From NCBI GenBank assembly GCA_028876805.1, contig JAGWQP010000020.1:1-34567 (forward strand): 34,567 bases of DNA. The letters are read 5' to 3'. The notes beneath the pieces are model-generated. The model saw only the letters and a list, made by a program, of their open reading frames with translations, had not been told where the DNA came from and ran no database searches. Below, one piece after another: positions 20,238 through 25,438 of this stretch. How positions within the stretch are numbered: the first letter of the stretch is position 1; the number at the start of each line of letters is the position of its first letter. Origin of the DNA: Acidobacteriota bacterium (GTDB taxonomy: Bacteria > Acidobacteriota > Terriglobia > Bryobacterales > Bryobacteraceae). The position numbers and the translations under genes were made by a program.

Positions 20238-20648
20238 TCAGACGTGGGCTCGGAGAACCGGGTGGGTGGCGCCGGTGATCGGGATCACCCGCATCGGGCG
20301 AGCACACGGTTCGAGCGAGTTGGCGGCGATCGACAGACCGCGAGTCCGAAAATGATATTTCACCACTCCGAGTGTGACTCGATCGCCGTCTACACCGATC
20401 ACGCGGCCTTCGATTATGAGCTGTAACTTCACCCGGTCGTCCAACAGAACCGGCCACGCGACCGAGACCTGCAGCCGGGCGGCGACCTGGAGGGCCGGTT
20501 CGGCGATGAACACGACTCGCCGGCTGCCAAACCGAGTGGTTCGGCCGCTGCCTGTCTCGACCGGCCTGCCGTCCGATAGAACCTGGTAATGAAGGTCCAG
20601 CGTAATCGGGTAGAGGGGCGGGTAACGCAACTTGTCCTGCCGTCTCAC
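20238..20648 (-). CDS. PilZ-like domain protein
   Basis: RYPPLYPITLDLHYQVLSDGRPVETGSGRTTRFGSRRVVFIAEPALQVAARLQVSVAWPVLLDDRVKLQLIIEGRVIGVDGDRVTLGVVKYHFRTRG. GTG start at 20648 preceded by GGAGG. Confidence 0.6.
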   Translation of the reverse strand: MRRQDKLRYPPLYPITLDLHYQVLSDGRPVETGSGRTTRFGSRRVVFIAEPALQVAARLQVSVAWPVLLDDRVKLQLIIEGRVIGVDGDRVTLGVVKYHFRTRGLSIAANSLEPCARPMRVIPITGATHPVLRAHV

Positions 20649-20856
20649 GGTTCCTCCAAGATCCACACCAATAGAGTGAATCGGAGAGCAACGCCGTTTC
20701 AGGCGGGAGCACCGGCGGTGCGGCAGTCTAGAGTGCGCCGGCGCCCAGTATGCTGAACACCGCACTATTGGCCCCAATGGAGAGCGCGAGGATCAGCAAG
20801 GCAACCGATGTAAAAAGAGGTGACCTGATCCGTAGGCAGAATGCATATCGCATGGC

Positions 20857-23325
20857 TCAGTTGATTGCGCCAGTATAAACCTGGAATGGAGCCCAGTAGT
20901 AAGGCTTGGCGTAAGAACCGCCACCGCGAACGAGGGACAGCTTGGCAGCACGCAAGGCATCGGCTGGGGTGGAACCGCGTGCGATCTCGGCGTAAAGACC
21001 CGACATTAGTTGCGCAGTCGAGCGGTCGTTCACATCCCACAAGCCGGCAATCACATTGCGCGCGCCGGCGCGAAGGAAGGCCCAGGCGAAGCCGACCGGA
21101 CCTTCACCCGCGTAGGTTTTCGCTCCGGCGCTTCGGCACGCGGAAATGGTCACCAGTTCGGCGGTAAGCGGGACGGACATCACGTCGCGCGCAAAGAGCT
21201 TGCAGCGGTCCGCTGGACCGGACAGGATGACGGCCGAATCGAGCGGACTCTGCGTGTTGGCCGCCGCGTGGGCAGAAAAGTGGATGAATTCGAAGCTCCC
21301 CGGCTGGGTGCCGACATATGAATCCGGGCGGGCTTCCGGCCCTCGCAAAACCTTCGAGTCGGAGTCGCCCATCGTGGAGCGGATGCTGTCGATTTCGCGC
21401 GCGGCGAACTCTAGCCTGGGATACTCCTGGAGGACCTGCGCAGGGTCTCCCATCAGGAGCAGTCCCTTTCCCTTGTGGAAGTATGGATGGCGGCTAGTGT
21501 CCACCAGGTAATCGAGCGACGGCGCAATCTCCACGTTCGCCTCTTCGATCCAGAACTTGTTACTATCGCTGCTAGCCGGAAAGCTTTCGAAGTTGAATGA
21601 GTACAAATCCTCGTCCGGCACAAGGATAACCCGGCAGCCCGCACACAGATCTTCGGCTGCCGGAGCCACCAGCGTGTCATACAACTTGCGGCCGACGTCG
21701 CCCGCGGCATCCAGCGGATTGCGCTGCCCGAGCACAATGTTGCGATAGGCTTCGACGAGGGCGCGGATCGTTTTCGCCGGTGGCAGTGTGTAATTGCCAA
21801 TCCGCTCTGCCGTAATCACCCAAAGGTACGATTGATTCTCACCGAGCCAGTATTCGAGCAACACCGCTTGGGCTTGCTGTGCCAACTTCTGGTAAGCCTT
21901 CGCTGCGTGCGACTGAGCGGGCGTCGGACGGCCACTCCGCTGGGCGAGCACGTGCGACCGGCTCGACTCGGCCACTTCAAGAGCCCGCTGGGACTGATGG
22001 TTGGCGACCAGAAAGTCGACGTACTTGCGATAGAACCGGATCAAACTCGCAAGGTAGGCGAACCTGTAGTCGTCTTTGATCAGCTGAGAACTCAGCCGTT
22101 CAATGGCTGAGACCGTGATCCTGAACTCCGCATCGGCACGCACGGTACGATGGCTCTGAACATAAACATCGGCAAGACCAGTGTGTGCTTCCAGGGCCAC
22201 GCTGGGGTCTTCGGCCGGCCCGCTCATCGTCGAGCGGAACAAGGATTCCGCCTTGGCAAGCTGGCCCCGGCCGAGAGCGATTCGACCCGCGTTGAGGAGC
22301 GAAGACGCTTCGAAGAGCGTATTTCCGAGGCTCCTCTTCAGCGCCAGCGCCTCATTGTTGTATTGCTCGGCAGCATCCCAGTCTTGCAATTGGATTGCGT
22401 TGTTCGCCAGATCGGTCAACCAGCGAGAGGCCCAATCGTCGTTCGGCACCTGGCGCGCTACTTGCAGTGCATGGCGAAATGCGGCCTTTGCTTCGGTGTA
22501 GCGGCCTGTATCCTCCAGGACGTTCCCGTCATTTCCGGTCCAGATTTGCTCTTCGAACTGGTTGCTTGCCCTGGCGAAGCCAGTTTGCGCGTGCTCATAA
22601 TAAAGCCGAGCCTTGTCATAATCCCCCAGGCGGTAGTAACAGGTCCCCAAATTGCCGTCGTCGCGTGCAACTGATTCATTCGCGTGCAATTGCGTGTGGA
22701 GCATTCTTGCTCTCTCTAGCCAAATAATCGCCTCGTCGAACCGGGCGGCGGTTAGCAAGGTGTAACCTAGGTTCCCTGTGGCAGTCGCCTCCAAGTAAAA
22801 CTCTTGTAGGGCGGATGCCTCTTTGATCACTCGGCGTAGTGAAGCTTCTGCTTCATGGAACCGAACCTGCTTCACCAACAGTAGGGCGCGGCGGAGCTCT
22901 ATCTCAGTGGCTAGACCATTGGAATCCGATTGGTGTGCCCGTTCAGCAGCTCGATTGAGTAGATCTTCAGCCTCCGCGTAGCGCGCCATGATGTAAGCTG
23001 CAAAAGCTCGCAGCAGAAGCGTTTTTCCACGAGCCTCTGCCCATTCGGGCCTATCAGGAGGATCCTCATTCAGAACAGCTAGAGCGGCAGAGGGCTTGCG
23101 TTGCGCCAACAGGATCTCTGCTTTCAAGAGGCGAAAACGCCACTCGAAAGTCAAATCTTTCGCTTGCCTGGCGCGAGAAAGCCCACGCTCAGCCTTACTG
23201 AGGGCCAGGAGATGTTGGTCAGATTCTAAAAGATTGATCGCAGCACGATAATCCCCACTGAGACTGCGCGGCTGGGTCACACAGCCGACAAGCAGTAGTG
23301 CCGTGAGCGACAGCAATACACGCAT
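20857..23325 (-). CDS. TPR-CHAT putative caspase-like protease, lipoprotein
   Basis: Lipobox-like LLVGC at N-terminus, many TPR-like repeats, C-terminal CHAT domain with candidate His (FEFIHFSAHAAANT) and Cys (LVTISACRSAGAKTYAGEGPVGFAWAFLRAGARNVIAGLWDVND). Confidence 0.88.
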   Translation of the reverse strand: MRVLLSLTALLLVGCVTQPRSLSGDYRAAINLLESDQHLLALSKAERGLSRARQAKDLTFEWRFRLLKAEILLAQRKPSAALAVLNEDPPDRPEWAEARGKTLLLRAFAAYIMARYAEAEDLLNRAAERAHQSDSNGLATEIELRRALLLVKQVRFHEAEASLRRVIKEASALQEFYLEATATGNLGYTLLTAARFDEAIIWLERARMLHTQLHANESVARDDGNLGTCYYRLGDYDKARLYYEHAQTGFARASNQFEEQIWTGNDGNVLEDTGRYTEAKAAFRHALQVARQVPNDDWASRWLTDLANNAIQLQDWDAAEQYNNEALALKRSLGNTLFEASSLLNAGRIALGRGQLAKAESLFRSTMSGPAEDPSVALEAHTGLADVYVQSHRTVRADAEFRITVSAIERLSSQLIKDDYRFAYLASLIRFYRKYVDFLVANHQSQRALEVAESSRSHVLAQRSGRPTPAQSHAAKAYQKLAQQAQAVLLEYWLGENQSYLWVITAERIGNYTLPPAKTIRALVEAYRNIVLGQRNPLDAAGDVGRKLYDTLVAPAAEDLCAGCRVILVPDEDLYSFNFESFPASSDSNKFWIEEANVEIAPSLDYLVDTSRHPYFHKGKGLLLMGDPAQVLQEYPRLEFAAREIDSIRSTMGDSDSKVLRGPEARPDSYVGTQPGSFEFIHFSAHAAANTQSPLDSAVILSGPADRCKLFARDVMSVPLTAELVTISACRSAGAKTYAGEGPVGFAWAFLRAGARNVIAGLWDVNDRSTAQLMSGLYAEIARGSTPADALRAAKLSLVRGGGSYAKPYYWAPFQVYTGAIN

Positions 23326-23328
23326 CTA

Positions 23329-24153
23329 CTAGTACGGGCTACCGCCATCGTCCGCCGCGACGGCCATAACGTCCCCTTCGACAGGTGAGCCCAGATTCAC
23401 ATGGATCATCGTCAGTCTACGGGTCTTTTTGCTGAGCTGCAACTCGGCGAGTTGAATCGTCCCAAAACCTTCAACATGGACGACATGCCCAAAGCACTTG
23501 TATTCAGGAGGGCGCTCCGGTTCTAGAGTGCGCAGTAAGGAGACGCAAGTGATGCCTTTCGTATGTGGCATCTCGGCATCATCCACGGCCGGGCGGTGAA
23601 ACCATCGTTGCACCCTTTCTGGCACTTCATGCAGTCGATGCTTTAGCGTAATACGATCAAAAAGGCTCCGGAATTCCTTTTCGGTCCGATATGCATCTGC
23701 AACTTGCTGATGCGTGTGCAGCCGGTCAAAGACATCCAGACAGAGATCCACGTTCACCGGGACACCAGCAATTTTCAGATTCTCAAACCGCGTTCCAGCA
23801 AGTTTGATCGAGGGCTGGCTGTCGGGACCGCCGTCATGGGTCGAGACTAGGTTTGCAACCACGCGATCAGCCGTGAGCATACCCATGATGTTGAGACCCT
23901 CGATTGTAGACTTGATCAATGTGTTAAAGACCATCCCGCCATCTCCGTTGCTCTTCGAGCCGGCAACTTCGCTATGAGCTACGTCGAACTGGAGGATTTC
24001 GCGATAACGGAAGTCCCGCGAACGAGCCGTGCCGTAGCCGCCAATCTCCGGCAGAGCGGCCGCCGCCTGGATTTCAATGATCTCTTGAAACGGATTGTGA
24101 ATACGGCCGCCCGCACCGATGGCATGTCCGCTAAAACGGTACCGACTAGGCAA
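23329..24153 (-). CDS. Conserved-looking protein of unknown function in the sigma/CHAT cassette
   Basis: 274-aa ORF starting with TTG (GAGGTG upstream), ending 3 bp before the CHAT gene start: RYRFSGHAIGAGGRIHNPFQEIIEIQAAAALPEIGGYGTARS... Confidence 0.72.
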   Translation of the reverse strand: MPSRYRFSGHAIGAGGRIHNPFQEIIEIQAAAALPEIGGYGTARSRDFRYREILQFDVAHSEVAGSKSNGDGGMVFNTLIKSTIEGLNIMGMLTADRVVANLVSTHDGGPDSQPSIKLAGTRFENLKIAGVPVNVDLCLDVFDRLHTHQQVADAYRTEKEFRSLFDRITLKHRLHEVPERVQRWFHRPAVDDAEMPHTKGITCVSLLRTLEPERPPEYKCFGHVVHVEGFGTIQLAELQLSKKTRRLTMIHVNLGSPVEGDVMAVAADDGGSPY

Positions 24154-24164
24154 CGTGCACCTCG

Positions 24165-24845
24165 CTAATAGAATTCGAAATGAAACAGGTAGGTAGCAAT
24201 CTTACCATTCTCGGGCCCGTTTTCCCCGAAAATTGTAAGTTCGTAGTCTCCGGAGGACAGTTTCCCGGCCGGCACCAGGACGGTGATGGGCTGCGCGCCG
24301 GCCGGCGCAGGCCCTGTAACCTCAAATATATTTTGGCCAGCTCGCGTCAGCACGCAACGGTAATCTGAAGACCGCACGTCGGGCGGAATGTCCGCCGAAA
24401 GCGGCACAAAGGGCGCGCCCCGCGGAACGCGGATGGGTGCAGCCTCGCCGCGGGAAGCGCCGGCCAACTGAATCGCCGGCAGCACCACCGGGTTCTCGAG
24501 GAGGTGCTCGAGGCGCGGGATTACGATTGCGCCTTCATACAAGGCAACGCCGGCGAACGCAAAGGCTGCCGCTGATGCGAGAGCAAACGCCCATTGCAGC
24601 TGCAACGAGAAAAACCGGAATGGTTTTCGCGGCACGGGCGGGCTTGCCGGCGCCGCGAGCCGGCTCGGGCGACCCATCACGGCTCGGGCGTTGGCGATGA
24701 ACACACCACCCGATTCCACGGCTTCCGCGCAGTCGGTGCATTCGAAATAGTGTTGTTCGAAATCCTCTGCTTCGGAGGCGGACAATTCGCCGAGCAAGTA
24801 CCGTTCAGCGGCTTGTGTTCCGATGGCTTGAGAATGGTCCATCAA
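24165..24845 (-). CDS. Anti-sigma factor with N-terminal zinc finger and one TM helix
   Basis: ERYLLGELSASEAEDFEQHYFECTDCAEAVESG (HxxxCxxC), TM QWAFALASAAAFAFAGVALYEG, C-terminal extracytoplasmic domain. Confidence 0.82.
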   Translation of the reverse strand: MMDHSQAIGTQAAERYLLGELSASEAEDFEQHYFECTDCAEAVESGGVFIANARAVMGRPSRLAAPASPPVPRKPFRFFSLQLQWAFALASAAAFAFAGVALYEGAIVIPRLEHLLENPVVLPAIQLAGASRGEAAPIRVPRGAPFVPLSADIPPDVRSSDYRCVLTRAGQNIFEVTGPAPAGAQPITVLVPAGKLSSGDYELTIFGENGPENGKIATYLFHFEFY

Positions 24846-24895
24846 TTTACGCCCTCATGGTTACAGTGAAGCGCCTGCCGATTCCGTTTCGCAGC

Positions 24896-25438
24896 CTAGA
24901 CCTCGCCACCCGCCGCCCCCCGGGCTCCGGATTCGAGGAGCTGAGCTTTGAAGCGCAGCCGGGCTCGATGCAGAAGGACCCTCAGATAATTGCGGTCGAT
25001 TTGTAACTCCCGGCACACCAAATCCTTATCCTCCTCCTCGAGAAGCACGCGCCGCAGCAGTTCGCGGTCTTTTTCAGGTAATTCCCCTAGAATTCGTCGA
25101 ACGACGCTGGTGCGCTCCTCCGAGATCATTCGCCCCTCCGCGCTGGGCGAGCGATCGGTCGGATCCTCAACCGTTTCCGGCACTTGATCGTGGCGCGTAT
25201 GGATACGAAGAAACTCCCGGGCAATGTTGCGGCACACAGAGTGGACGAACCCCGGCAGGCTGGCCGGATTCTCGAGCGTTTTGCCGGAGCGGAAATACGA
25301 CAACACTCGAAGGAACGTCTCCTGGGAGGCATCCTGGATCAATTCGGGGGATCGCAACCGGGCCCGGAGTTTCAACTGTACCGGACGGTAGAAGTGTGAC
25401 ACCAGGACATTTTCGGCGCGAGCATCGCGATCGGCCAA
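24896..25438 (-). CDS. ECF RNA polymerase sigma factor
   Basis: ELIQDASQETFLRVLSYFRSGKTLENPASLPGFVHSVCRNIAREFLR (region 2), ILGELPEKDRELLRRVLLEEEDKDLVCRELQIDRNYLRVLLHRARLRFKAQL (region 4). The true start may lie upstream: FDYNFLRSLADRD is in frame before the TTG at 25438. Confidence 0.85.
   Translation of the reverse strand: MADRDARAENVLVSHFYRPVQLKLRARLRSPELIQDASQETFLRVLSYFRSGKTLENPASLPGFVHSVCRNIAREFLRIHTRHDQVPETVEDPTDRSPSAEGRMISEERTSVVRRILGELPEKDRELLRRVLLEEEDKDLVCRELQIDRNYLRVLLHRARLRFKAQLLESGARGAAGGEV

What the first reader, a model, noticed from the sequence alone, without database searches (positions are those of the whole stretch)
20857..25438. Compact ECF sigma / TM anti-sigma / unknown protein / TPR-CHAT protease cassette
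Four minus-strand genes with gaps of 50, 11 and 3 bp: ECF sigma, zinc-finger anti-sigma with one TM helix and a C-terminal extracytoplasmic domain, a 274-aa protein of unknown function, and a lipobox-bearing TPR-CHAT protein retaining candidate His (HFSAHA) and Cys (ISACRS). CHAT domains are caspase-like. In the type III-E Craspase system a TPR-CHAT protease cleaves Csx30, releasing sigma-factor control. Here a TPR-CHAT protein is linked to sigma/anti-sigma without any CRISPR effector. Hypothesis: a protease-triggered sigma switch, with the 274-aa protein or the anti-sigma outer domain as substrate.
Basis: partly seen in the sequence, partly recalled or inferred. Interest (0 to 1): 0.72.

Follow-up and report, generated by a model that had tools for sequence, protein, structure and literature searches.

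The report
Conserved sigma-switch cassette with lipoprotein CHAT protease
Soil bacteria of the Acidobacteriota keep four genes together: a gene-switching sigma factor, its membrane-bound inhibitor, a protein of no known fold, and a caspase-like protease predicted to sit outside the inner membrane; this points to an undescribed proteolytic signalling switch that needs no CRISPR.

Summary
In detail: the four genes, strand, coordinates and gaps (50, 11, 3 bp) check out. It is also much more than a local coincidence. Relatives of the 274-aa protein (here "CAP") occur in 98 of 257 genomes of the window's order and in further Acidobacteriota families. In 83 CAP loci the TPR-CHAT gene follows CAP in every testable case (79/79; CHAT domain 70/70), the anti-sigma precedes it in 76/79 and the ECF sigma in 64/79. 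Several loci without an adjacent sigma have an orthologous sigma elsewhere. Flanks are not conserved. The four proteins co-diverge (r 0.75-0.87) under purifying selection. The CHAT His/Cys dyad is intact in every member that covers it; a lipobox cysteine in 57 of 58.

The reading changes in three ways. TPR-CHAT is predicted outside the inner membrane whereas CAP has no signal peptide, so CAP as substrate is disfavoured. CAP is not Csx30-like: it is a leaderless choice-of-anchor-P relative with no solved fold match. The anti-sigma outer domain is the plausible substrate; it carries a nearly invariant Arg loop just outside the membrane. A second CHAT-sigma-anti-sigma arrangement exists without CAP. 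Cleavage itself is untested.

The parts
24896..25438 (-). ECF sigma factor (SIG), 180 aa
   Evidence: NCBIfam sigma70-ECF TIGR02937 50.7 bits vs cut-off 42.9; Pfam regions 2 and 4 below cut-off; upstream of CAP in 64/79 loci
24165..24845 (-). Membrane-bound zinc-finger anti-sigma (ANTI), 226 aa; probable start ATG at 24842
   Evidence: zf-HC2 above Pfam cut-off; upstream of CAP in 76/79 loci; model pLDDT 89.9
24729..24752 (-). ZAS zinc motif H32-x3-C36-x2-C39
   Evidence: invariant in 70 aligned relatives
24525..24593 (-). Transmembrane stretch, about residues 85-107, within the predicted helix 77-117
   Evidence: hydrophobic sequence; helix in model
24441..24464 (-). Juxtamembrane loop, residues 128-135, with nearly invariant R132; candidate recognition or cleavage site (inference)
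   Evidence: R132 in all but two listed relatives; loop between first two outer strands; the same Arg-Gly step in 15 listed anti-sigmas of the CHAT-SIG-ANTI arrangement
24168..24473 (-). Outer domain of the anti-sigma, Ig/cupredoxin-like beta-sandwich
   Evidence: model and weak PDB fold matches to azurin and Ig-type domains, E 2e-3 to 1e-2
23329..24153 (-). CAP, 274-aa leaderless choice-of-anchor-P-related protein
   Evidence: NF040603 36.1 bits vs 27; model pLDDT 95.7, pTM 0.92; no PDB fold match at E <= 0.001; no signal peptide in 63 relatives
20857..23325 (-). TPR-CHAT lipoprotein, 822 aa
   Evidence: CHAT PF12770 175 bits, several TPR families; directly after CAP in 79/79 testable loci
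23281..23292 (-). Lipobox LVGC (residues 12-15)
   Evidence: Cys15 conserved in 57/58 aligned relatives; N-termini
20878..21699 (-). CHAT protease domain (residues 543-816)
21268..21270 (-). Candidate catalytic His686
   Evidence: present in every cassette member whose alignment covers it; 57/58
21136..21138 (-). Candidate catalytic Cys730
   Evidence: present in every cassette member whose alignment covers it; 56/58

Best explanation
The cassette is a dedicated envelope-signalling unit. The ECF sigma is held at the inner membrane by the zinc-finger domain of its anti-sigma. The TPR-CHAT protein is exported and lipid-anchored on the periplasmic side. Its TPR superhelix senses an envelope signal or ligand, and its CHAT domain then cuts the outer part of the anti-sigma, most likely in the juxtamembrane loop that carries the nearly invariant Arg132. 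A site-2 protease and cytosolic proteases finish the job and free the sigma. CAP is a cytosolic beta-protein that most likely acts on the sigma/anti-sigma side, tuning or assembling the complex, rather than as the CHAT substrate. Shown here: the conserved unit, the intact dyad, the lipobox, the absence of a CAP leader, the fold predictions and the conserved Arg. Inferred: periplasmic topology, direction of signalling, cleavage and its site, and the role of CAP.
For: Near-absolute linkage: TPR-CHAT 79/79, anti-sigma 76/79, sigma 64/79, in at least nine families of the phylum, with no conserved flanking genes. Where the sigma has moved away, clear orthologues of it usually remain elsewhere, most without a detected anti-sigma beside them, e.g. 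61-68% identical in G169, G170 and G172. Co-divergence r 0.75-0.87 against permutation maxima of 0.10-0.15 (shared ancestry not removed). CHAT dyad conserved. Lipobox Cys 57/58. One CHAT clade, SH-aLRT 99. The protease and the anti-sigma outer domain are predicted on the same side of the membrane. R132 lies in a loop next to the membrane and is nearly invariant. The same Arg-Gly step recurs in the CHAT-SIG-ANTI anti-sigmas and was not apparent in the intact non-CHAT-linked ECF anti-sigmas read in eight genomes. M50 (site-2 protease-type) genes are present in the genome.
Against: No cleavage, localisation or expression data exist. The Arg may be structural for this outer-domain family, and several anti-sigma-like proteins near other CHAT genes lack it. 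Co-transcription alone would also fit CHAT as an output of the sigma. CAP is unexplained by the core model although it is the most strictly CHAT-linked gene; one locus keeps CAP-CHAT with no detected anti-sigma nearby (L141), and two keep CAP-CHAT with the anti-sigma on the other side (L124, L125). G061 and G060 show no clear orthologue of the sigma. No shared promoter motif was found upstream of the sigma genes.
Confidence: 0.42

Rival explanations
1. Effector model. The sigma/anti-sigma pair senses envelope stress by itself and switches on its own operon; CAP and the TPR-CHAT lipoprotein are outputs, with CHAT processing envelope or foreign proteins.
For: Tight gaps suggest one transcript. 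ECF factors usually control their own operon (general knowledge). Cassette CHATs keep an active dyad wherever covered.
Against: Where the sigma has left the locus, the anti-sigma, not the sigma, stays with CAP and CHAT, which fits a protease acting on the anti-sigma better. A second gene order with CHAT in front of sigma and anti-sigma is also conserved.
Confidence: 0.3
2. Csx30-like model. TPR-CHAT cleaves the 274-aa CAP protein, which is itself an inhibitor or cofactor of the sigma.
For: CAP and CHAT are the two most strictly linked genes (79/79) and one CHAT clade goes with CAP. CAP tails carry a recurrent (N/D)G...P motif of unknown use.
Against: CAP is leaderless in 63 of 63 relatives while the protease has a conserved lipobox. 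CAP is predicted compact, with no block of ten residues below mean pLDDT 84 and so no obvious linker to cut. No Csx30 similarity by profile or listed fold match. The CHAT-SIG-ANTI arrangement exists without CAP.
Confidence: 0.12
3. CHAT works as a non-proteolytic TPR scaffold or ligand sensor that binds the anti-sigma outer domain.
For: TPR superhelices are classic binding domains (general knowledge); no proteolysis is shown.
Against: His686 and Cys730 are conserved in every covered member across the phylum.
Confidence: 0.1
4. Chance neighbours of unrelated genes.
For: None found.
Against: Linkage counts, unconserved flanks, co-divergence.
Confidence: 0.01

Closest known systems
Type III-E CRISPR Craspase: Csx29 (TPR-CHAT), Csx30, CASP-sigma (PMC10028731)
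   Same: A TPR-CHAT protease encoded with an ECF-type sigma factor and a sigma inhibitor; cleavage of the inhibitor is the proposed switch.
   Different: No Cas7-11 or RNA guide; the inhibitor is a membrane zinc-finger anti-sigma, not Csx30; the protease is a predicted lipoprotein; CAP shows no relation to Csx30; the CHAT scores far below the Csx29 model.
Regulated proteolysis of anti-sigma factors (DegS/RseP on RseA; DegS and RseA as described in PMC10028731)
   Same: Membrane-spanning anti-sigma with an extracytoplasmic part and a protease predicted on that side; M50 proteases are present in the genome.
   Different: The candidate site-1 protease is a caspase-like CHAT lipoprotein encoded in the same cassette, with an extra CAP gene.
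ECF54 group with CHAT, subtilase or carboxypeptidase proteins in its genetic context (PMC8999054)
   Same: ECF sigma genes next to CHAT-domain protein genes, with proteolytic control proposed.
   Different: ECF54 is described there as lacking an anti-sigma; here a zinc-finger anti-sigma is present in 76/79 loci. Membership of this sigma in ECF54 was not tested.
Choice-of-anchor P family (NCBIfam NF040603)
   Same: CAP matches the first two thirds of the model above cut-off.
   Different: CAP is leaderless and operon-bound; a distant relative in L121 is a large protein with a signal peptide, the kind of surface protein the family name suggests.

Membership tests
CHAT-domain proteases | CHAT domain above Pfam cut-off | tested here: met
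   175 bits vs 24
CHAT-domain proteases | His and Cys catalytic residues | tested here: met
   H686 and C730 present and conserved
CHAT-domain proteases | Proteolytic activity | not testable with these tools
   needs a biochemical assay
Type III-E Craspase (Csx29/Csx30/CASP-sigma) | Csx29 family membership | tested here: not met
   NF041237 18.6 bits vs cut-off 300
Type III-E Craspase (Csx29/Csx30/CASP-sigma) | Cas7-11 effector in the genome | tested here: not met
   only RAMP hit is Csm3 of a type III-A locus on another contig; genome about 92% complete
Type III-E Craspase (Csx29/Csx30/CASP-sigma) | Csx30 homologue | tested here: not met
   CAP and its relatives match only choice_anch_P; no PDB profile match; no Csx30 among listed fold matches
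ECF sigma factors | Sigma-70 regions 2 and 4, ECF length | tested here: met
   TIGR02937 over cut-off; Pfam regions detected below cut-off
ECF54 subgroup | ECF54 sequence signature | not tested
   no ECF subgroup models available; the classification paper is not held
Zinc-binding (ZAS) class I anti-sigma factors | H-x3-C-x2-C motif, N-terminal to one membrane helix | tested here: met
Choice-of-anchor P | Model match above cut-off | tested here: met
   36.1 vs 27 bits, model positions 1-123 of 185
Choice-of-anchor P | Export signal and C-terminal surface anchor (feature inferred from the family name) | tested here: not met
   no signal peptide in 63 relatives; compact C-terminus
Known anti-phage defence proteins (PADLOC) | Match to a PADLOC model | tested here: inconclusive
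   only a generic TPR model, E 9e-6

The most novel reading that the evidence does not exclude
A phylum-wide, CRISPR-free 'caspase-to-sigma' pathway in Acidobacteriota: a lipid-anchored caspase-like protease outside the inner membrane cuts its cognate anti-sigma at a conserved Arg-Gly step next to the membrane, with a cytosolic protein of new fold as a third regulator. At least two gene arrangements evolved (SIG-ANTI-CAP-CHAT and CHAT-SIG-ANTI), and the Csx29/CASP-sigma pairing of Craspase would be a parallel use of the same logic.
Probability: 0.3. Interest if true: 0.82.

Novelty: new variant of a known kind. Interest (0 to 1): 0.64.

Why it matters
CHAT proteases are known mainly as separase relatives and from CRISPR-guided Craspase. 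A conserved, guide-free CHAT/sigma unit in a dominant soil phylum would show where such protease-sigma coupling exists outside CRISPR. It offers a simple two-protein cleavage assay, would put caspase-like proteases among the site-1 proteases of anti-sigma signalling, and brings a high-confidence predicted fold without a solved relative.

Tried and rejected
A shared ECF promoter motif upstream of the sigma genes: the best 5-mer/3-mer pairs occurred in 14 of 63 loci against shuffled maxima of 8-10, with no consistent position or ECF-like core, so not pursued. A fifth conserved cassette gene: none in clustering of flanking ORFs. CAP-like fusion proteins as a clue: the 718-aa frame in L121 is a secreted choice-of-anchor-P-type protein, not a cassette. 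CAP on plasmids: no match. Fold matches of CAP to outer-membrane barrels and viral proteins: TM-scores mostly about 0.1-0.25 and E >= 0.015, judged spurious. A weak PDB sequence hit of CAP to a ribosome-biogenesis protein (E 0.001) did not recur with the family profile and was rejected. CHAT hits to lectins in the PDB rest on short Gly-rich stretches. Literature searches found no description of this cassette in the held open-access library.
Full report
THE OBSERVATION. Family searches give an ECF sigma (above the NCBIfam ECF cut-off, below Pfam's), a zf-HC2 anti-sigma, and a TPR-CHAT protein with strong CHAT and TPR scores. This is the genome's only CHAT gene and only choice_anch_P gene at the thresholds used.

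IS IT MORE THAN CHANCE? CAP relatives were found in 98 of 257 genomes of the same order and in 25 of 396 genomes drawn from the whole phylum. At least nine families there carry the CAP-CHAT pair. I fetched wider loci and labelled ORFs with profiles grown from the window's proteins. Over 83 loci, the TPR part follows CAP in 79 of 79 cases with enough sequence, and the CHAT domain in 70 of 70. The anti-sigma precedes CAP in 76 of 79 and the sigma in 64 of 79. No other gene cluster is shared by more than 8 loci, and the largest one sits beside the cassette only in one small group of related genomes. In the 55 complete cassettes, pairwise divergence of the four proteins correlates at 0.75-0.87 against permutation maxima of 0.10-0.15; part of this is shared ancestry, which the test does not remove. 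dN is well below dS for all four genes in every close pair tried.

THE SIGMA THAT MOVED. Fifteen loci lack an adjacent sigma. Ten of these genomes were searched with the window's sigma. In seven the best match lies far above the rest: 61-68% identical in G169, G170 and G172, 40-45% in G229, G200, G230 and G158. G063 has a weaker one (35%), and G061 and G060 have no clear orthologue. Around these unlinked sigmas no anti-sigma was detected, except in G200 (a short one) and in G060, whose hit belongs to the CHAT-SIG-ANTI arrangement. So ANTI-CAP-CHAT can stay together while the sigma relocates but is usually kept.

THE PROTEASE. In every cassette member whose alignment covers the site, His686 and Cys730 are present (57/58 and 56/58, the exceptions being fragments). 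The N-terminal lipobox cysteine is conserved in 57 of 58. The protein is therefore most likely an active cysteine protease anchored by a lipid outside the inner membrane; that is a prediction from motifs, not a localisation. All 70 CAP-linked CHATs tested form one side of a branch with SH-aLRT 99. The PDB relatives found by sequence are separases and a CHAT-domain protein. The match to the Csx29 model is 18.6 bits against 300.

THE ANTI-SIGMA. The model (mean pLDDT 89.9, 70 sequences) has an N-terminal zinc domain, a flexible stretch at 60-76, a long helix 77-117 that contains the membrane span, and an outer beta-sandwich that weakly resembles Ig-type and cupredoxin domains. H32, C36, C39 and G199 are invariant and R132 is at least 90% conserved. 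By eye, only L131 and L139 of the listed relatives lack the Arg. R132 lies in a loop between the first two outer strands, next to the membrane. The same Arg-Gly step is present in all 15 listed anti-sigmas of the second arrangement. In eight genomes, the best full-length matches to this anti-sigma family were the eight cassette copies and four CHAT-SIG-ANTI copies. The intact ECF anti-sigmas without a CHAT neighbour that I could read lacked this outer domain and the step. Some CHAT-adjacent anti-sigma-like proteins have a similar step (L168, L173, L174) and others do not (L171, L175, L176, L178). Clan CD proteases include Arg-specific members such as separase (general knowledge). I take the loop as the leading candidate site, no more: a structural role of the Arg is not excluded.

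CAP. The model is very confident (pLDDT 95.7, pTM 0.92): long antiparallel strands and a helical insert, with no PDB or viral fold match at E <= 0.001 and no profile match in the PDB. None of 63 relatives has a leader peptide. Many tails end in an (N/D)G...P-like motif of unknown use. A distant family member in L121 is a large protein with a signal peptide, so the leaderless cassette form looks like a cytosolic derivative. CAP's predicted side of the membrane differs from that of the protease, which argues against CAP as the direct substrate.

A SECOND ARRANGEMENT. In CAP-less genomes many TPR-CHAT genes of about 800 codons stand directly in front of a sigma and an anti-sigma (16 loci). They form a supported group in the CHAT tree together with two relatives in which the neighbours were not seen and keep His and Cys wherever aligned, apart from one or two divergent positions around the His motif. 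They mostly lack an obvious lipobox but start with a hydrophobic segment. The pairing of CHAT with sigma and anti-sigma is thus broader than CAP.

MECHANISM. Best supported is a proteolytic sigma switch in which the lipoprotein TPR-CHAT cuts the anti-sigma outside the membrane (0.42). The main rival is that CAP and CHAT are outputs of the sigma (0.30). The Csx30-like reading with CAP as substrate gets 0.12. None of the cleavage steps is shown. M50-type proteases that could complete the pathway are present in the genome.

WHAT IS KNOWN. The held literature contains the Craspase work (PMC10028731) and a review stating that ECF54 sigmas, said to lack an anti-sigma, have CHAT-domain, subtilase and carboxypeptidase genes nearby (PMC8999054). 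So an ECF/CHAT link is already on record. The four-gene unit with an anti-sigma, a lipoprotein CHAT and CAP was not found described, but the main ECF classification paper is not held, so it may list this group. CRISPR is not involved as far as can be tested: the genome's RAMP gene belongs to a type III-A Csm locus on another contig.

LIMITS. Many loci are from metagenome-assembled genomes. ORF starts are mechanical. Alignments were automatic. The tree is a quick one. Only Acidobacteriota were surveyed; plasmids gave nothing, and one pattern scan of genome contigs, which finds close relatives only, returned only Acidobacteriota records.

Noticed in passing
L144-L145, L148-L161 (e.g. L149, L155, L161): A second conserved arrangement, TPR-CHAT then ECF sigma then anti-sigma, without CAP; the anti-sigmas share the Arg-Gly step after the membrane helix.
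   Followed up: partly
L184-L188, L190-L192: Orthologues of the cassette sigma sit alone, without a detected anti-sigma, in genomes that keep ANTI-CAP-CHAT elsewhere.
   Followed up: yes
window 20238-20777 (-); L002 9367-9777; L184 and L185 just downstream of the unlinked sigma: A small PilZ-like-looking protein (no Pfam or NCBIfam match for the window copy) follows the cassette in the window and L002, and a similar protein follows the relocated sigma in G169 and G170; possibly a regulon member.
   Followed up: no
L121 547-2703: 718-aa secreted protein with choice-of-anchor-P-like segments, a leadered relative of CAP.
   Followed up: partly
L120 1435-2445 and 432-1091: A distant, leaderless CAP relative (336 aa) lies divergent to an ECF sigma and a zinc-finger anti-sigma in G264; whether a CHAT gene is near was not checked.
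   Followed up: no
L077, L078, L079, L080, L081, L083, about 200 bp upstream of the sigma: A roughly 93-codon LuxR-type HTH frame precedes the cassette in one group of related genomes.
   Followed up: no
C-termini of CAP relatives (window 23332-23350): A recurrent (N/D)G...P-like tail in an otherwise variable C-terminus; role unknown.
   Followed up: partly
G000 contig C269 (L196): The same genome carries a type III-A CRISPR locus (Cas10/Csm1, Csm2, Csm3 and a further RAMP-like frame).
   Followed up: partly
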